A stretch of DNA of 23,013 nt from a virus, in IMG/VR virus record IMGVR_UViG_3300031673_000508, positions 1-23,013 of that record; one strand, 5' to 3'. Both the position numbers and the translations under genes were made by a program. Of this stretch, positions 1 to 8,859 are shown one piece after another. The notes under the pieces are model-generated. The model had not been told where the DNA came from, did no database searches, and worked only from the letters and a program-made list of their open reading frames with translations. How positions within the stretch are numbered: position 1 is the stretch's first letter; each line of letters starts with the position of its first letter.

Positions 1-2
1 AT

Positions 3-650
3 TCCATCATAGCCGCTCATGCCATGGTGACCCCCGGGGAGGTTCCTTTCATTCATACTACTCCCGAGAAACTCAAGGATTCCATCTCAGCCCGATTGGT
101 GCTGCTCGGCCATTACCATGATCCGTGGGCAAAAATCATCATTAGAGAAAAAGTCTCGGACGGCATGAAGAAAGAACTATCAGTGGGCCTGAAGAAAATA
201 CTTACCTCCAAGGAAGAATGGGGATTGGTATTCCCATGGACCGAATTCGGGAGGATAAATCTATTCATCAACCCAGGAAGTATCGCAAGAATCGCATTGC
301 TTTCCCATAATCTGAGTAGAATCCCCAGGGCCATTATTGTTGATGATAACGCCGATGGCGTGAAAATCTCTTCCCTCCCTATTTCGATCGCCAAACCTCC
401 CGACGAAGTCTTCGCCATCGGGGAAGCGGAAAGAGATAGCGATTGGGAAAACAGAATCCAGGATTTCCTTAAGGCGATGGAGAATGTGAAAGTCGAAGGG
501 ATTGAGGCCGCGACTCTCGTCATGAATGCTGCCAAGGCTCGGGCCGGAGTCGAAAACATCGATGAAATAGAAGAGGATCAAAAACGGGTTCTTGATCGCG
601 CCTTGTCGGCGGTTTCGCAGGCTGAAAATGGAACCGCCATCACCGAATAG
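3..650 (+). CDS. Mre11/SbcD-like metallophosphoesterase, C-terminal part (5' partial)
   Basis: This is the C-terminal part of a calcineurin-like phosphoesterase of the Mre11/SbcD/T4 gp47 type, which would act as the nuclease partner of a Rad50-like ATPase at DNA ends. The frame is open to the left window edge, so the ATG at 24 is probably internal. Seen: an AHA triplet just before that ATG (a candidate motif IV histidine), then LGHYHDP (the GHxH metal-binding motif V) and further on INPGSIARI, which matches the 'GS' strand following GHxH in SbcD and YfcE proteins. The last ~80 residues are acidic and helical. The N-terminal D-x-H and GNH motifs lie outside the window. A coiled-coil gene starts 9 bp downstream and a Rad50-like half-ATPase follows it. 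The family is well supported; the exact substrate is inferred. Confidence 0.8.
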   Translation, partial: SIIAAHAMVTPGEVPFIHTTPEKLKDSISARLVLLGHYHDPWAKIIIREKVSDGMKKELSVGLKKILTSKEEWGLVFPWTEFGRINLFINPGSIARIALLSHNLSRIPRAIIVDDNADGVKISSLPISIAKPPDEVFAIGEAERDSDWENRIQDFLKAMENVKVEGIEAATLVMNAAKARAGVENIDEIEEDQKRVLDRALSAVSQAENGTAITE

Positions 651-659
651 GAGAATCTC

Positions 660-902
660 ATGAGCGTCATCGACGAAGTAGCGAAGATTCGCAAGGATAT
701 TGAACAACTGAGGCTTCAGGAAGCACGTCTCAAAGAACGCTTTGAATCCGAGAAGGAGGAGAAGAATCGATTGCTCGGGGAAGCCAGTGCTCTTGGCGTT
801 CCCGAACCTTCACAACTCAGAGCCTGGGTTGAAGAACAACAACTTCTCTTCGATACCAAGAAGGCCGAGATCGAAAGACTACTTCGTGAAGCGGAGAATT
901 AA
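660..902 (+). CDS. small coiled-coil protein between SbcD-like and Rad50-like genes
   Basis: An 80-residue, highly charged protein with long heptad-like helices: residues ~1-42 are rich in Glu, Lys, Arg and Leu, followed by a break (GVPEPSQLRAW) and a second helix to the end. The pattern suggests a helical hairpin. It has no catalytic motif. It lies 9 bp after the phosphoesterase gene and 2 bp before the ATPase gene, so all three are probably co-translated. By position it may supply a coiled-coil arm to the short ATPase downstream, which lacks the long SMC/Rad50 coiled coil; this is inference. The start is the first ATG after a purine-rich AGGAGAA sequence ending at about 656. Confidence 0.65.
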   Translation: MSVIDEVAKIRKDIEQLRLQEARLKERFESEKEEKNRLLGEASALGVPEPSQLRAWVEEQQLLFDTKKAEIERLLREAEN

Positions 903-904
903 TC

Positions 905-1498
905 ATGCACAATCTAATAGAAAGATTCATGGCCATTCGGGATCGACATAACCAGCGGGTCGGCGAAATGAACCAGATCAAAGGGCGATTGAGTAAGCTG
1001 ATCGTTGAAAAGGATCGAGTGGCTCTGAATCAGCAGGTATCCAAGGAGGCGATCATCCTTCTGGAGACGGCGAGCCAGAGTGCAAGAGAATTCATCACAA
1101 AGAAATTCAATGATATTGTGACTTTTGCATTGCAAGCTGTCTTCGGGGAGGATTATCGATTTGAGACCAATCTCGAAATTAAAAGAAACGCGGTATGGGC
1201 CGACTTCAGAGTTCTTTCCTCCGGGTATTCCGAGGCCGCAGATCCTCTGATGTCCAGGGGAGGAGGCGTCGTGGATATTGTTTCGATGGCGTTGCGGATC
1301 GTGTTGATCGAATTGTATACGCCGCGAATTGATGGGCCTATCATATTCGATGAACCAACGAAGCAACTAAGCAAGATGTTTTCGGGACGAACATCCGAAT
1401 TGTTACAAGCCATATCGGAGCGCGTGCATCGGCAAATCATTCTCGTCACGCACGATCCGGTGCTGGCGAAGGATGCAACATCAAAGGTGGAATTATGA
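905..1498 (+). CDS. Rad50/SbcC-like ATPase C-terminal lobe lacking Walker A
   Basis: A 197-residue protein resembling the C-terminal half of Rad50/SbcC/SMC ATPases. Residues 1-60 are a charged helix. The ABC-type signature is S117-R-G-G-G121, followed by the helix DIVSMALRIVLIEL. Walker B is PIIFDEPT with D149 and E150, and the switch histidine is H183 in LVTHD. No P-loop (GxxGxGKS/T) occurs anywhere in the protein, and the gene is too short for a full Rad50. The architecture recalls short Walker A-less ATPases that I remember beside SbcD-like genes in phages, but no search was possible. It probably works with the upstream phosphoesterase in DNA end processing or recombination, with the P-loop supplied by another protein. 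Its stop overlaps the next start (ATGA). Confidence 0.75.
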   Translation: MHNLIERFMAIRDRHNQRVGEMNQIKGRLSKLIVEKDRVALNQQVSKEAIILLETASQSAREFITKKFNDIVTFALQAVFGEDYRFETNLEIKRNAVWADFRVLSSGYSEAADPLMSRGGGVVDIVSMALRIVLIELYTPRIDGPIIFDEPTKQLSKMFSGRTSELLQAISERVHRQIILVTHDPVLAKDATSKVEL

Positions 1499-1875
1499 GT
1501 CGTGAACACTGCGAAAAAGCGGCAGTTGCCACCATCGATATCGATTGGCACTGGAAGGCTTGCGAATACTGCGCTTATTGGAACCCCGAAATGGACAACA
1601 GAAGGGGTCCAAAAGGCGGTTGCGACAAGGGGATCACATCAGAAAGGGATAGCCGTATTAGAGAGGATTACGACTTACCAGGGGACGGCGCTGCTTATTG
1701 CTCTATATTCGAAGAAGGCGAATGGAAATCGGAAGAAAAAATTCTGGCTCAAGCGAAAGTAGATGGCATTATTTTCGATCATCCAGACCAGAGGTTTTTA
1801 TTCGAAGGGCTGTCGCCTATTCTGGAGAAGGATCTGATAGAGGAAGAACGAAAGAAATTGGAAAAGAAAATCTGA
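1495..1875 (+). CDS. hypothetical Cys-rich protein, possible zinc binder
   Basis: A 126-residue protein that I do not recognise. The N-terminal half has Cys at 6, 23, 26, 43 and 69; C23-E-Y-C26 is a CxxC pair, and C43 and C69 could complete a zinc site. The C-terminal ~45 residues are charged and helical, ending in a Lys/Glu-rich tail. Its ATG overlaps the stop of the Rad50-like gene by 4 bp, so translation is probably coupled and a role linked to the same recombination cassette is likely. Nothing seen points to an enzyme. Confidence 0.6.
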   Translation: MSREHCEKAAVATIDIDWHWKACEYCAYWNPEMDNRRGPKGGCDKGITSERDSRIREDYDLPGDGAAYCSIFEEGEWKSEEKILAQAKVDGIIFDHPDQRFLFEGLSPILEKDLIEEERKKLEKKI

Positions 1876-1886
1876 GGTTCGACGAC

Positions 1887-3002
1887 ATGATTCATTCGGT
1901 TTACGTTCGTGGAAGAAACGATAAAAATTGGCCGAGGGAACTTCCCTATCCATTGAAATGGAAGGAATTAACCGGTAAAACCGGTAATTTCATGAAGTTT
2001 CTCTACAGTGATAATATCTCCGAATCCATTCATAATTGCCGGGAATTCTTTATAAAGCAGGGCTGGGAATTCGAACCCGGAGACATTACTGAGATCCATA
2101 TCAACCATGATCTCATGAAAGGCGATACGAGGATTTTTCGTTTTTCCGAGAAGTTAATCGATGCGCTTTTATCGACGAATTTAGGTGAGGTCCCGACGGA
2201 ACTCATTCGTCTTCCGTTCGAGCGCATGTATCTTGATTTTTCTGAACATGATTTCACAGGGGACTTTAACGGCCATAAGTGGTGGATCCGGGGTGTTCAA
2301 CTGGGAATCGATGAAATCGAAGACAAGAGATTAAAATTTCTTCGCATTCATCAAGTCCGATATATGGAAAAGGGTGTGGACTTTCTGGGACAGCCATTCC
2401 CATTTGGTTTCAATATGCTCATGTTCAGGATTTCTCCCGACAAAGTTTTGGAAATTCCCGATATCAAAACCGTCGAAGACATGGCTAAGAATATGAATTT
2501 GGCATTTCCTGCGGATTGGTTCATTGATGGTTTTTTCACAAAAAATCCTCAATCAGCGATATCATCACTCGATGCGATCCGCGACGTTATAGAACTTACG
2601 ATAAACGCCATTCTCTACATCAATTCTGCGAATGCGGATCTCAAGGAGGGTTGGGTCAAGGAAGGTCTCTATAAAAAATGGCGTAGTTCCAATGGACATA
2701 AAAAGACCGAACTCAAGCATGAACTGAATAAATTCGGAAAATTATATCGATGCGGGACGAGAATCAATATCCCGACATTTTTCGGAAACTCGACTGGCGG
2801 AGGCTCGGGTGGCAAGATCGGGGTTCGCTTCCAGGTCAGAGGACATTGGCACCATTACTGGATGGGGCCTCGAAAGGGCGACCCAGGCGAACAAAAAATT
2901 AAGCTTAATTGGGTGATGCCTTTCTGGAAAGGTCCGGAGCTGGCCGACATTGTGAACAAGAAACAATATCAAGTTGATACCGTGAAAGGAACCAAAAGAT
3001 GA
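1887..3002 (+). CDS. conserved phage protein with C-terminal RGHW...PFWKG motif
   Basis: A 371-residue protein. The open frame extends upstream into the previous gene, but the ATG at 1887, 11 bp after that gene's stop, is the natural start. Near the C-terminus, after a Gly-rich linker (GGGSGGK), come VRGHWHHYW and then WVMPFWKGPE. I remember the pattern RGHW..(Q/W)..G...W(I/V).P(Y/F).(K/R)G from uncharacterised phage and plasmid proteins, some labelled AcaB-like regulators. That label is from memory and does not establish a function. The N-terminal ~280 residues are mixed alpha/beta with no motif I can name. The stop overlaps the next ATG (ATGA). The operon position suggests an early or replication/recombination role; the function is unknown. 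Confidence 0.6.
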   Translation: MIHSVYVRGRNDKNWPRELPYPLKWKELTGKTGNFMKFLYSDNISESIHNCREFFIKQGWEFEPGDITEIHINHDLMKGDTRIFRFSEKLIDALLSTNLGEVPTELIRLPFERMYLDFSEHDFTGDFNGHKWWIRGVQLGIDEIEDKRLKFLRIHQVRYMEKGVDFLGQPFPFGFNMLMFRISPDKVLEIPDIKTVEDMAKNMNLAFPADWFIDGFFTKNPQSAISSLDAIRDVIELTINAILYINSANADLKEGWVKEGLYKKWRSSNGHKKTELKHELNKFGKLYRCGTRINIPTFFGNSTGGGSGGKIGVRFQVRGHWHHYWMGPRKGDPGEQKIKLNWVMPFWKGPELADIVNKKQYQVDTVKGTKR

Positions 3003-3294: not shown

Positions 3295-3657
3295 ATGCCG
3301 AAAATTAAGGTCACTTATAAAGAAGTCCCGGATTGGAAATTTCCAAACGAACTGGATTCTCTTCTTCGGGACTTCGAAAGATTGTTCGAAGATTTTCGAA
3401 ATAACGCCGCCAAGTCGGACAGGAATCTTGTTGCTTGTAGGAGAGCCAGAACAATCTTGCAAACAATTCGATTCGGTCTGGGACCCGTGTTGCGTAAAGC
3501 TCTATTCCGGCAACGTGACCATTTGGAATCTCTTAGACATGGAGTAACGTTCGATGAATGGAAACGACGCAAAGAAGTCGAACATCCTGATGGGAGTGGA
3601 CGCGGGTCTCGCCAAAACAGGCGTAGCCATCGTCGCCGTCCCGGATCCGTGGAATAA
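3295..3657 (+). CDS. hypothetical basic protein overlapping the resolvase gene
   Basis: A 120-residue protein. Residues 1-90 read as a compact helical domain (PDWKFPNELDSLLRDFERLF, then an Arg-rich helix). Residues ~88-120 are very basic and low in complexity (RGSRQNRRSHRRRPGSVE) and lie in the stretch where the frame overlaps the start of the RuvC-like gene by 104 bp. The basic tail could bind nucleic acid, or could simply be what the resolvase coding sequence spells in this frame. There is no recognised family. It starts 2 bp after the preceding gene. Confidence 0.5.
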   Translation: MPKIKVTYKEVPDWKFPNELDSLLRDFERLFEDFRNNAAKSDRNLVACRRARTILQTIRFGLGPVLRKALFRQRDHLESLRHGVTFDEWKRRKEVEHPDGSGRGSRQNRRSHRRRPGSVE

Positions 3658-4120
3658 GGATCTCAAGGAAGGTCGAATAATCACAGCGCAGTCTTTCGTT
3701 ACGCGCCGAGAAGATACCAAGGTCCGCAGAAGCGACGAAATGCTGAAGAATCGAATCAGACAGGTCGCCGGTTTTTATCTGAAGTTCATTGAGACATATA
3801 AACCGAGGATTATATCCCTTGAAAGCATGTCTTATCCGAGAAATGCTGCGAGTTCCGCCATGTTGGGCATGGCATGGAGCTCCCTTTACACGCTCGCATT
3901 CATGCATAATATTCCGGTGTTCATTTATAGCCCGAGGGAAGTCAGAGACTCACTCGTCTTGCCGAGAAATGCATCGAAGAAGGATATCGAATTCACCGTT
4001 CGGGAGGCGTTCACTGACTATAAAGATTGGCCCAAGGGAAATGTTCGCGAGCACGCCTTCGATGCAACGGCCGTCATCATGACGTTTCTGAATGACGAGA
4101 ACTGGTGTCGCTTTATATAG
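3554..4120 (+). CDS. RuvC-like Holliday junction resolvase
   Basis: A 188-residue RNase H-fold nuclease of the RuvC type that would cut branched DNA made during phage recombination and replication, clearing it before packaging. Catalytic acids are visible in order: D16 in GVDAGLAKTG, E90 in IISLESM, and H167 with D170 in EHAFDATAV, the usual D-E-(H/D)-D layout. The length fits RuvC. The chosen ATG has a GGAG 9 bp upstream (3541-3544). A second in-frame ATG at 3590 lies just before the first catalytic strand, and using it would shorten the overlap with the upstream gene from 104 to 68 bp. It sits in the cassette that also holds SbcD/Rad50-like genes, consistent with a recombination operon. Confidence 0.85.
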   Translation: MNGNDAKKSNILMGVDAGLAKTGVAIVAVPDPWNKDLKEGRIITAQSFVTRREDTKVRRSDEMLKNRIRQVAGFYLKFIETYKPRIISLESMSYPRNAASSAMLGMAWSSLYTLAFMHNIPVFIYSPREVRDSLVLPRNASKKDIEFTVREAFTDYKDWPKGNVREHAFDATAVIMTFLNDENWCRFI

Positions 4121-4965: not shown

Positions 4966-5586
4966 GTGAGAAAAGCGAAGCGAGTCTGTAAGGTCGATGG
5001 GTGCTTCAAAGGTTTTTATTGTAAGGGTTATTGCGAAAGACACTATTGGCAACTACACGTCCATAGAAAAATACTGAACGTCGATCGTACTAAGTTTGAT
5101 CCCAACGTGATACGCGTGGGGAGGGATACCGCCGCGATCATATTATGCGACCAACGTGGCTTTCCAATCGCTGAAACACTGATCGACAAAACTTTCATTG
5201 AAATAGTTCGTGGATACAAATGGCATCTACACCATGAAGGATACGCCGAGTCTGGATCAAATTCCATTTTTCTACACCATCTCGTCCTCGGTAGACCGCC
5301 CGTCGGCATGGAGATAGATCATATTAATCGCAACCGATTAGATAATCGCTTTGAAAATCTTAGGTCAGTTACTTTCGGACAGAACAATATGAACGTCAGC
5401 GTCGGGACAAATAATACTTCGGGCGTGACGGGCGTTAGTTGGCACAAAGGAGCCCGCAAATGGCAGGCTGGCATCATGCTTGATTACAAGAACAAACACC
5501 TCGGTCTCTTCGAAAGAAAACAAGACGCTATCGACGCACGAAAAGAAGCAGAACGAAAATACTTCGGCGAATATTCGCCAAAATAA
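4966..5586 (+). CDS. HNH/AP2 homing endonuclease (N-terminus frameshifted)
   Basis: A free-standing homing endonuclease of the HNH type common in phages. In the 206-residue frame: a zinc knuckle (C8, C13, C23, H26, ending GYCERHY), a linker, the HNH core (H104-H105, then EIDHINRNRLDNR with D118-H119, N121 and N131 in ENLR), and a C-terminal AP2-type DNA-binding domain from ~151 (SGVTGVSWHKGARKWQAGI...HLGLF) to the end. The annotated GTG at 4966 has no Shine-Dalgarno sequence; the real start is probably ATG 4829 in another frame (see the adjacent entry), so the gene may be inactive or produce little protein. It is the last gene on the plus strand and looks like an independent mobile insertion downstream of the recombination cassette. 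Confidence 0.8.
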   Translation: MRKAKRVCKVDGCFKGFYCKGYCERHYWQLHVHRKILNVDRTKFDPNVIRVGRDTAAIILCDQRGFPIAETLIDKTFIEIVRGYKWHLHHEGYAESGSNSIFLHHLVLGRPPVGMEIDHINRNRLDNRFENLRSVTFGQNNMNVSVGTNNTSGVTGVSWHKGARKWQAGIMLDYKNKHLGLFERKQDAIDARKEAERKYFGEYSPK

Positions 5587-6467: not shown

Positions 6468-6737
6468 CTATTTCTCGATCTTGTCCTTCGTTTCCTGGAC
6501 CAGTACGGAGAACTCGGCTGCGGTTTTGAGGCGGATTTCTCGGGACGATTCGGGCATCGTCTGGTCAGCCATCACGTAGGCAATGTATTCCTTCCCGATC
6601 ACGGTCCAGTTCGAATCCACGGCCTTGACGAATGCCTCGTTCATCGATCCCCAGCAGCCGCCCGTCAATGCAACTACCAGGATGAGTAGGGCCACGATCA
6701 CCATGAAGCGGCCCATCAGCAAATCCCTGATCTTCAT
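6468..6737 (-). CDS. small membrane-anchored protein or lipoprotein
   Basis: An 89-residue protein. The frame is open further upstream, but AAGGAGG placed 6 bp before the ATG at 6737 decides this start. Residues 1-10 are basic, followed by a hydrophobic segment (FMVIVALLILVVAL, 11-24) and TGGC with Cys28, which resembles a lipobox although position -3 is Thr instead of Leu. The remainder is soluble and helical. A spanin-type lysis subunit or another envelope-anchored phage protein would fit its size, topology and place after the fibre gene. Neither can be demonstrated from the sequence, and no partner endolysin or holin is recognisable in the window. Confidence 0.6.
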   Translation of the reverse strand: MKIRDLLMGRFMVIVALLILVVALTGGCWGSMNEAFVKAVDSNWTVIGKEYIAYVMADQTMPESSREIRLKTAAEFSVLVQETKDKIEK

Positions 6738-6771
6738 CTTGAACCTCCTTAATCCCACTCGAACCAGAATT

Positions 6772-8859
6772 TTACGGCCAAACCAGCTCGTCATTGTCCA
6801 CGTCAGCGAATTCCTCGTATCCGAGAACGTAGATAAAGATGGAGTGGTCGGTCCCAGCGCCATTATTGTCTTTGGAAATATCGATTTGTCTGGCCTCGTT
6901 CATCGCAACCCATCCGCTGCCTACCCCAGGGGCTGGAGCTGTCCCTGCCCAATCCATGGCGTGCGCCTCGATCTTGTTATTCTCATTGGTTCCAGCTCCA
7001 GGGGTTTCATGCAAGGCCATGTTGCCGGTTGGGGCCGGACGAACATAGCCGTGAATCCAGGAAGACGCGATCGTGACTTTAATCCTTAGAAAAGCCCGTA
7101 GAGAACCAGGGGGAACTCGCGTGGCCAGGGATTGAACCGCCGTGCCCCAGCCTAAAGCTCCTATCGCCCCGTAGGTATACTGAAGTTGTGCCAGTTCATA
7201 TTCGCAATGGTTTCCAATTTTGCGAATTTGGCAGAGTTCCCAAGCACTGCCATTCTGATTCATTACGGCAGCAATGAATCTCCAGTATCTCCAGCCACCT
7301 TCGTCCCCGGCAACAACCCCCCCGTTCCAGAACTTGAACACGGGCGATCCCCCATCCGTGAGGGCCGGGCCACCGGCCCAGGGCGGATTGGAAGAAAACA
7401 CCAGAGCCAAATGAGGAGAAATTCCAGTGTATTCGCGGCCGATGAGATACACGTAGCGCCAAGTATCCAAGCCGTAGGTGGGCTGCGTATTGTCGGCTTG
7501 TCCGATGTTGTTCGCGGCGGGCGAACCGTTGAAGTAAACGTCCAAGGGGTAATCCGGGTGTCCCCGGTCGTAATCGAAATAGTAATCCCCGTATTTCTGA
7601 GTCGGATTCTGATAATCCCCTCGGGCAAGGCCATGCATCTGATGAAGTCGATAGCGAATGAATGGCGTGTCATCTCGCGGCATAAAGATCATCGAAGGCC
7701 GCGAGGCCAGCTTTCGGACCGAGGCAAGTGCATTGAGAGGAAGTAGCCGTGAATCGCTTCCTTGAACGGCCTTGCCCGCCGCTGTTTCTCCGTCCGTCGC
7801 GAGCTGAACTTTTCCTTTGACGGTTGTAGTCGCGTCTGGGATCTCCCCCGCGATTTGATCCGATTGGATTGCGAACATGGGATCAGAGGTCGGATAGGAA
7901 TCCAGACCAAAGACTTCCTGCACATACCACAGGAAGACCGGACCGCCAGAGAAGGGAGTCATGTCGAACACGGCTTCCGGCCCACCTGCCGGGTAGGTGT
8001 AAAAAGTTAAGGTCCAAGTGTAAGGGAAGGTCGCCCCCGTTGCAGTGATTCGTCCGTAGACTTTGTCTCCGGTTGCGGGATCGATGAAATTGTCGCGGTC
8101 TATATTGAAGACTTTGACATAGTTATCCGGAGGCGTTGTCATTATTCCCTTGGAGGTCGACGAACCTCCCGGAGGAGACGCATGGGCATTCAACTCCGTC
8201 GAGACATCGACGCTCGACCCGGCGGGAATGATCACATTGGTCGGTTGGTATGCCCTGCCCAGGAATCCGAGCTGACTGGCGACGTAAGAAGGTGTGAGTT
8301 CGATGTAAAGGAAATCCTCGCGTCTCAGGACATTGATATCCCCTGCCAGAATCTGGGTCTGACCGTAGATGAGATAGATATCGCAGATCAGGACTTGATT
8401 CGCCCTCGGCGGCGGCTTAATCGCAGCGCCGATCCCAGCCTCGGCCGATTGGACCACGTTGAATTTCGTGGTTTCATCGCGTTTCCAATAGACCGTCGAT
8501 CCGTTTCCATCGGTGCGGGGATCGGACAGCACCCTATCAGCTTCCACGAAAATGGAGAGCCATTTTTCGTTTCCCGGTGCGACAACCGCAGTTGACGCGG
8601 CATTTTCGTCGACAGCGCAATTTACATTGGTGATCGCATCGGTCGGAATGCGTCTGCCGAGCTGATCGTATCCGACGTGAACGGGGATATTGACCGTCAG
8701 ATCAGCCGGGCTCGCGGGATATGGAAGCGGACTCCCAAGGAGTCCGTATCCGAGGATCTCCTTCGCGATCGCCCAGTCGGCAAGTTCGATCTTGTCATCT
8801 GCCTCATCCCATTCCGCATCGGTCACGCGCTGTTCGAAATACCAATCGCGACGGTCCAT
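6772..8859 (-). CDS. tail fibre-like protein
   Basis: A 695-residue structural protein. The longer upstream frame is discounted because AAAGGAG lies just before the ATG at 8859, in the 16-bp gap after the gpI-like gene. The N-terminal ~70 residues (DRRDWYFEQRVTDAEWDEAD...) are probably the baseplate-attachment end. Around residues 345-368, KGKVQLATDGETAAGKAV then QGSDSRL matches the short linker motif seen in many phage fibres. The remaining C-terminal part is beta-rich with many Trp, Tyr and Gly, ending in an AHAMDWAGTAPAP...HSIFIYVLGYEEF region that may form the receptor-binding tip. It follows the gpI-like gene, the usual place of fibre genes in P2-type operons. There is no reverse transcriptase or variable repeat nearby, so it is not a diversity-generating target. 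Confidence 0.75.
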   Translation of the reverse strand: MDRRDWYFEQRVTDAEWDEADDKIELADWAIAKEILGYGLLGSPLPYPASPADLTVNIPVHVGYDQLGRRIPTDAITNVNCAVDENAASTAVVAPGNEKWLSIFVEADRVLSDPRTDGNGSTVYWKRDETTKFNVVQSAEAGIGAAIKPPPRANQVLICDIYLIYGQTQILAGDINVLRREDFLYIELTPSYVASQLGFLGRAYQPTNVIIPAGSSVDVSTELNAHASPPGGSSTSKGIMTTPPDNYVKVFNIDRDNFIDPATGDKVYGRITATGATFPYTWTLTFYTYPAGGPEAVFDMTPFSGGPVFLWYVQEVFGLDSYPTSDPMFAIQSDQIAGEIPDATTTVKGKVQLATDGETAAGKAVQGSDSRLLPLNALASVRKLASRPSMIFMPRDDTPFIRYRLHQMHGLARGDYQNPTQKYGDYYFDYDRGHPDYPLDVYFNGSPAANNIGQADNTQPTYGLDTWRYVYLIGREYTGISPHLALVFSSNPPWAGGPALTDGGSPVFKFWNGGVVAGDEGGWRYWRFIAAVMNQNGSAWELCQIRKIGNHCEYELAQLQYTYGAIGALGWGTAVQSLATRVPPGSLRAFLRIKVTIASSWIHGYVRPAPTGNMALHETPGAGTNENNKIEAHAMDWAGTAPAPGVGSGWVAMNEARQIDISKDNNGAGTDHSIFIYVLGYEEFADVDNDELVWP

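What the first reader, a model, noticed from the sequence alone, without database searches (positions are those of the whole stretch)
3..1498. SbcD-like phosphoesterase next to a Walker A-less Rad50 half and a small coiled-coil protein
A normal SbcC/Rad50 carries Walker A at the N-terminus, a long coiled coil, and signature/Walker B at the C-terminus. Here the C-lobe (signature S117-GGG, D149-E150, H183) is a 197-residue protein with no P-loop, the coiled coil is a separate 80-residue protein, and the nuclease is immediately upstream. Either the P-loop half is encoded elsewhere (a split Rad50), or this is an ATPase-derived subunit with a different mechanism. The split arrangement could be a minimal DNA-end-processing complex.
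Basis: partly seen in the sequence, partly recalled or inferred. Interest (0 to 1): 0.6.

Follow-up and report, generated by a model that had tools for sequence, protein, structure and literature searches.

The report
Rad50 repair ATPase split in pieces
This phage encodes the DNA-end-repair ATPase Rad50 in separate pieces: the window holds its nuclease partner (cut by the contig edge), a small coiled-coil protein and the rear half of the ATPase, while relatives show that the ATP-gripping front half is a separate gene that ends exactly at the zinc hook, so a machine thought to need one continuous chain appears to be assembled from parts.

Summary
The 197-aa protein (905-1498) is a Rad50 C-lobe without a P-loop: its family profile matches Rad50 C-halves (E 6e-16), and its model (pLDDT 94.8) has Rad50 1f2u chain B as top match (Z 14.2, 2.5 Å over 130 residues).

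The window is a whole 23-kb contig starting inside the nuclease gene, so the missing half would lie off its edge. In 82 of 90 relative loci (64 of 72 distinct) a separate gene for the other half lies nearby, always on the same strand: Walker A, Q-loop, coiled coil and a CxxC zinc hook 3-23 residues before its stop (81 of 83). In the closest relative it lies about 6 kb upstream of the nuclease.

Rad50 is thus cut at the hook. The return coil is almost gone; an 80-aa helical protein sits beside one half. No ORF carries both halves. In 13 of 15 whole records the split pair is the only Rad50 found. Gene order is shuffled, and five loci fuse nuclease to the P-loop half.

Likely mechanism (inferred): the pieces assemble into an Mre11-Rad50-type end-processing complex. 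I found no published description in the library searched. New variant of a known kind.

The parts
3..650 (+). C-terminal 215 aa of an SbcD/Mre11-type metallophosphoesterase (gene truncated by the contig start; motifs IV and V present, I-III off-contig)
   Evidence: blastp to L013 nuclease E 6e-11, L008 E 1e-10; conserved H, GxxH, NxG...R columns; full-length relatives keep D.H, GD, GNHD motifs
660..902 (+). small helical hairpin / coiled-coil subunit, 80 aa, with a central GVPEPSQL break
   Evidence: same-size helical proteins with a GVxPExL loop lie directly upstream of the C-half or directly after the N-half in relatives; sequence similarity alone is weak (best blastp E 0.025)
905..1498 (+). 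Rad50 C-half: 50-aa coil stub + C-lobe with variant signature (G119-G121), Walker B D149, catalytic E150, switch H183; no Walker A
   Evidence: (phrog_15167 E 3e-38)
1495..1875 (+). small Cys-rich protein (CxxCAYW...C) whose start overlaps the C-half stop by 4 nt; possible accessory, also present in closest relative L011
   Evidence: E 0.041, weak
1..2 (+). contig edge: the Rad50 N-half gene (Walker A + coil + CxxC hook) is expected upstream of here and is not in the window
   Evidence: no AAA_23 in the window; record is a linear fragment; N-half about 6 kb upstream of the nuclease in closest relative G001/L100; same order N-nuc-small-C in L002, L013, L027, L057

Best explanation
This is part of a naturally split Mre11-Rad50 (SbcDC) module. 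Rad50 is divided at its zinc hook into (1) an N-half with Walker A, Q-loop, the whole outgoing coiled coil and a CxxC hook at its very C-terminus, and (2) a C-half with a ~50-aa coil stub, signature, Walker B and switch His. A third, ~80-aa helical hairpin protein stands where the return coil would be encoded. The fourth part is the SbcD/Mre11 nuclease. The window holds (2), the small protein and the end of the nuclease; the N-half gene lies beyond the contig start. Shown: the separate halves, their complementary ATPase motifs, their co-occurrence, and the absence of an intact Rad50 in relatives. Inferred: N- and C-halves associate into one ABC head, two heads sandwich ATP, the small protein caps or pairs with the orphaned coil, and the complex processes phage DNA ends for recombination, together with the nearby RuvC-like resolvase.
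For: C-half profile matches Rad50 C-halves (3aux 167-368, E 6e-16) and the model matches 1f2u_B (Z 14.2). N-half profile matches Rad50 N-halves (5f3w 2-234, E 2.5e-18). The two matches are complementary. N-half found in 82 of 90 loci, always same strand. 81 of 83 N-halves end 3-23 aa after CxxC. Walker A G52, G57, K58, Q-loop Q152 and hook C378 are invariant in the N-half, and D149-E150 in the C-half. No ORF has both halves. In 15 whole records there is one C-lobe ORF each (206-316 aa) and, in 13, an N-lobe ORF of 360-540 aa above the family cut-off; no intact Rad50. Nuclease and N-half are fused in L005, L007-L009 and L056. N, C and nuclease distances correlate, r 0.85-0.90, 0 of 1000 permutations. 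Solved Rad50 heads 1f2t and 1ii8 consist of separate N and C chains, so two-chain heads are physically possible.
Against: The window's own N-half is not seen, since the contig ends first. Assembly of the pieces was not modelled or tested. The canonical signature Ser is not conserved, so the ATP sandwich may differ. Some C-half carriers (Tunturi_5, G003, G004, G007) have no N-half that my profiles detect. The mirror-tree correlation can come from shared phage descent.
Confidence: 0.87

Rival explanations
1. The C-half works alone or as a homodimer, an ATPase-derived subunit that no longer binds ATP and merely scaffolds the nuclease.
For: No P-loop in any C-half; signature Ser lost; a few genomes have a C-half without a recognised N-half.
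Against: Walker B Asp, catalytic Glu and switch His are kept in 55-56 of 56 C-halves, which makes sense only if ATP is hydrolysed at a shared site; an N-half with intact Walker A is present in 82 of 90 loci.
Confidence: 0.06
2. Artefact: a normal SbcC gene broken by frameshift, mutation or misassembly.
For: Metagenomic contig with a truncated edge.
Against: Same split in 72 distinct loci including isolate genomes (vB_BboS-125, Mvi-JY20, Magritte) and plasmids; the break is always at the hook; in many loci the nuclease or other genes lie between the halves, and in Magritte the halves are about 93 kb apart in the record.
Confidence: 0.01
3. The module is a phage-borne defence or anti-defence system of the SMC-like kind (Lamassu LmuB-like) rather than recombination machinery.
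For: N-half's best PADLOC matches are LmuB (E 1e-14); such ATPases are all Rad50 relatives.
Against: No toxin or effector recognised in the module; partner is an SbcD-type nuclease with intact motifs; neighbours are Holliday junction resolvase, UvsW-type helicase and the like; LmuB is a single chain carrying both lobes.
Confidence: 0.05

Closest known systems
Rad50 of Pyrococcus furiosus / Methanocaldococcus (1f2u, 1ii8, 3aux)
   Same: C-lobe and N-lobe folds, Walker A, Q-loop, Walker B, switch His, CxxC hook
   Different: One continuous chain with two antiparallel coils in nature; here separate genes cut at the hook, with the return coil reduced to a ~50-aa stub
SbcCD of E. coli and T4 gp46/gp47 (from general knowledge; compared here only through structure matches 6s85, 6s6v, 7yzo)
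   Same: Two-function nuclease + ABC ATPase module next to recombination genes
   Different: Intact ATPase with LSGGE-type signature
Mre11/Rad50 fusion proteins (Mimivirus R555, Bacillus phage 0305phi8-36, Anaerostipes; PMC3175470)
   Same: Nuclease-ATPase fusion as in L005, L007-L009, L056. The paper noted that in the Bacillus phage and Anaerostipes cases one P-loop segment of SbcC was not observed, which may be the same split
   Different: The passages read do not report the missing half as a separate gene; whether those two cases belong here was not tested
PHROG_16465 'exonuclease' and PHROG_15167 'ATPase'
   Same: These are the N-half and C-half families
   Different: Catalogued as separate families; not described as two halves of one protein
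Archaeal ASRP and Lamassu LmuB (SMC/Rad50-like)
   Same: Rad50-type lobes; ASRP also has a zinc hook (PMC9389158)
   Different: Single chains with both lobes

Membership tests
Rad50/SbcC | ABC C-lobe with signature, Walker B, switch His | tested here: met
   Fold and profile matches; D149, E150 56/56, H183 55/56; but signature is GGG[VI], not LSGGE (the viral loci were selected with that motif)
Rad50/SbcC | Walker A and Q-loop N-lobe | tested here: met
   In relatives, as a separate protein: 46/46 G52, G57, K58, Q152; not visible in the window itself
Rad50/SbcC | Zinc hook CxxC at coil apex | tested here: met
   81 of 83 N-halves have CxxC, 3-23 aa from the C-terminus; zinc binding not tested; Magritte's N-half lacks it
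Rad50/SbcC | Both lobes in one continuous chain with two long antiparallel coils | tested here: not met
   No ORF with both lobes in 90 loci; 174-376 residues between Q-loop and hook in the N-half, but usually only about 120 residues before the signature in the C-half, of which helix 2-80 holds the stub
Mre11/SbcD nuclease | Five phosphoesterase motifs D.H, GD, GNHD, H, GHxH | tested here: met
   In full-length relatives; in the window only motifs IV and V, the rest off-contig
Mre11-Rad50 complex | Physical complex of nuclease and ATPase, ATP-dependent DNA end processing | not testable with these tools
   Gene linkage and five natural nuclease-N-half fusions only
Lamassu LmuB | Single-chain SMC-like ATPase with effector LmuA | tested here: not met
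   Split chain; no effector recognised; nuclease has no PADLOC match

The most novel reading that the evidence does not exclude
Rad50 works here as a three-piece ATPase with a one-sided arm. The N-half coil reaches the hook alone or folds back on itself, the return coil has been replaced by a detachable 80-aa helical protein, and the ATP site uses a signature without the canonical serine. Head-to-hook signalling therefore cannot run along two continuous antiparallel coils as assumed for Rad50.
Probability: 0.4. Interest if true: 0.75.

Novelty: new variant of a known kind. Interest (0 to 1): 0.62.

Why it matters
Rad50 is held to need one continuous chain, so that ATP-driven changes in the head travel along paired coils to the hook. 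A widespread phage family that cuts the chain at the hook and drops most of the return coil is a natural experiment on which parts of that path are needed. It gives a small, separable system for reconstituting DNA-end tethering and nuclease activation. It also joins PHROG families that are now catalogued separately, and may explain the incomplete SbcC fusions noted in 2011 (PMC3175470).

Tried and rejected
- Scans of viral contigs with single window proteins found nothing; only the family alignment worked.
- The genome-contig scan with the alignment failed for lack of a conserved stretch; a single Bacillus protein found four bacterial loci with the full module.
- Pfam gives no confident hit for the window's own proteins.
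- A P-loop DNA pattern search of the window gave one spurious hit on the other strand inside tail genes.
- Sequence similarity of the small protein alone is not significant in blastp. My HMMs for it included the window sequence, so those E-values are not independent; the same holds for the nuclease HMM. The case for the small protein rests on position, size, helical make-up and loop motif.
- Invariance of GGG in the signature is partly circular because the viral scan was seeded with that motif. Relatives found by BLAST show GHG (L002) and GDG (L006) as well.
- Fold matches that extend along the coil of the N-half mostly have very large rmsd (about 13-50 Å) and say nothing reliable about its path. 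AlphaFold helices 176-267 and 277-375 are of similar length, which would allow a fold-back; not resolved.
- I searched for 0305phi8-36 relatives by tblastn with a fused protein and did not recover that phage, so its link to this family is untested.
- Co-folding of the pieces could not be run.

Full report
What is there. The window is a complete IMG/VR record of 23,013 bases, linear and probably a fragment. Its first bases lie inside a gene. ORF 3-650 is the last 215 residues of a phosphoesterase, ORF 660-902 is an 80-aa helical protein, and ORF 905-1498 is a 197-aa ABC C-lobe without a P-loop. The rest of the contig carries a RuvC-like resolvase (3554-4120), an HNH endonuclease and, on the other strand, contractile-tail genes: tape measure, baseplate wedge, tail tube. 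No AAA_23 N-lobe is present in the window.

The C-half is Rad50. A profile of 56 relatives hits the C-halves of archaeal Rad50 first (3aux residues 167-368, E 6e-16; 3qkr_B 3e-15; 1ii8_B 2e-14), ahead of SMC and ABC transporters. The AlphaFold2 model of the window protein has mean pLDDT 94.8: one long helix (2-80) followed by the C-lobe. Its best solved match is Rad50 1f2u chain B (Z 14.2, 2.5 Å, 130 residues), then the P. furiosus Mre11-Rad50 complex 9a9j chain B (Z 14.0). Walker B Asp149 and Glu150 are kept in 56 of 56, and switch His183 in 55 of 56. The signature reads GGG[VI] instead of LSGGE, and the position of the signature serine is not conserved. The viral relatives were collected with a pattern that includes this motif, so its invariance is partly built in. 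BLAST-found relatives show GHG and GDG variants.

The missing half exists as its own gene. I examined 90 loci around C-halves (window, three phage records, six plasmid records, 80 viral contigs) with profiles for each part. A separate N-half is present in 82 loci and a nuclease in 83. After removing near-identical C-halves, 64 of 72 loci have an N-half, in every case on the same strand as the C-half. The N-half profile hits Rad50 N-halves (5f3w 2-234, E 2.5e-18), and all 46 aligned members match Pfam AAA_23. Walker A Gly, Gly and Lys and the Q-loop Gln are invariant. Its most striking feature is the end: 81 of 83 N-halves have a CxxC (mostly CPxC) with only 3 to 23 residues after it. That is the Rad50 zinc hook, normally at the middle of the chain. 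Rad50 is therefore cut just after the hook.

No intact copy. No ORF in the 90 loci has both lobes. In 15 whole records the C-lobe profile finds exactly one place each, in ORFs of 206-316 aa. AAA_23 finds one N-lobe above the family cut-off in 13 of them, in ORFs of 360-540 aa; one record has a second, sub-threshold match. The isolates vB_BboS-125 (L001), Mvi-JY20 (L002) and Magritte (L099) are among them. In Magritte the halves are about 93 kb apart in the record, and its N-half has lost the hook. Tunturi_5 and viral records G003, G004 and G007 show no N-half by my profiles.

The window's own partner. The closest relative, IMG/VR contig G001 (L011, 46% identity over the C-lobe), has the same order nuclease, small, C-half. 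Its N-half (Walker A GETDKGKS, hook CPVC, 14 residues before the stop) lies about 6 kb upstream of the nuclease. In L013 it lies 1.5 kb upstream. The window ends inside its nuclease gene, so the expected N-half is outside it. This is an inference for this phage and an observation for its relatives.

Gene order and fusion. The order varies: N-nuc-C, N-small-C-nuc, N-nuc-small-C, nuc-N-small-C. This shuffling rules out frameshift or read-through explanations. In L005, L007-L009 and L056 the nuclease and N-half are one protein of 800-940 aa, which ties the nuclease to the split ATPase. N-half, C-half and nuclease distances correlate (r 0.85-0.90), as expected for co-inheritance, though common descent of the phages would give this too.

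The small protein. In most loci a 77-121-aa helical protein with a central G-V-x-P-E-x-L break lies directly upstream of the C-half, often overlapping it, or directly after the N-half. In two very large phages it stays with the N-half (L093, L094). It sits where the return coil of Rad50 would be encoded. N-halves have 174-376 residues between Q-loop and hook, while the C-half has only a stub of about 50 residues. I infer that the small protein pairs with the coil base or replaces part of the lost return coil. Its sequence similarity between families is weak.

How it probably works. Established for canonical Rad50: N- and C-lobes form one ABC head, two heads sandwich two ATP, Mre11/SbcD docks at the coil base, and hooks join through zinc. 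Solved Rad50 heads 1f2t and 1ii8 consist of separate N and C chains, so joining two polypeptides into a head is feasible. The motifs here are divided so that neither half should hydrolyse ATP alone: Walker A and Q-loop in one, signature, Walker B and switch His in the other. I therefore think the halves join into a head, dimerise and control the nuclease at DNA ends during phage recombination. The joining, the DNA activity and the role of the small protein are not shown.

What is known. In the library searched I found no paper describing a split Rad50 or SbcC. PMC3175470 noted that in fusion proteins of Bacillus phage 0305phi8-36 and Anaerostipes one P-loop segment of SbcC was not observed; I could not test whether these belong here. 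PMC7824862 calls SbcCD near-universal in jumbo phages and describes split polymerases; the passages found there do not mention a split SbcC. PHROGs lists the halves as separate families 16465 'exonuclease' and 15167 'ATPase'.

Verdict. Observation confirmed, split-Rad50 interpretation supported, complex formation inferred. A new variant of a known kind.

Noticed in passing
1495-1875: Cys-rich 126-aa protein (CxxCAYW...C) overlaps the C-half stop by 4 nt; closest relative L011 has a similar CxxCAYY protein in the same place (6468-6863). May be a further accessory part.
   Followed up: partly
3554-4120: RuvC-like Holliday junction resolvase (phrog_159 E 2e-17) shortly after the module, fitting a recombination cassette.
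   Followed up: no
4966-5586: HNH endonuclease (phrog_99 E 4e-42), possibly a homing endonuclease.
   Followed up: no
L001 6860-7840 (NC_048735.1 22423-23403): The SbcD-like nuclease of Bacillus phage vB_BboS-125 is an unannotated ORF in the public record.
   Followed up: partly
L101 1839-2891 (Magritte gp155): An N-half that has lost the CxxC hook and is encoded about 93 kb from its C-half in the record.
   Followed up: partly
L003, L063, L077, L087: C-half carriers (including 309-kb phage Tunturi_5) in which no N-half is recognised; divergent partner or different mechanism.
   Followed up: no
L093, L094 (300-kb and 456-kb viral contigs): In very large phages the N-half and C-half are far apart and the small coil protein stays with the N-half.
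   Followed up: partly
L018 5563-6477, L019 5299-6186: C-halves with an extra ~90-residue N-terminal extension (295-304 aa), perhaps a longer coil stub.
   Followed up: no
1698-3002: 434-aa protein of unknown function with only a short PHROG match at its C-terminal end (phrog_6160 E 6e-11).
   Followed up: no
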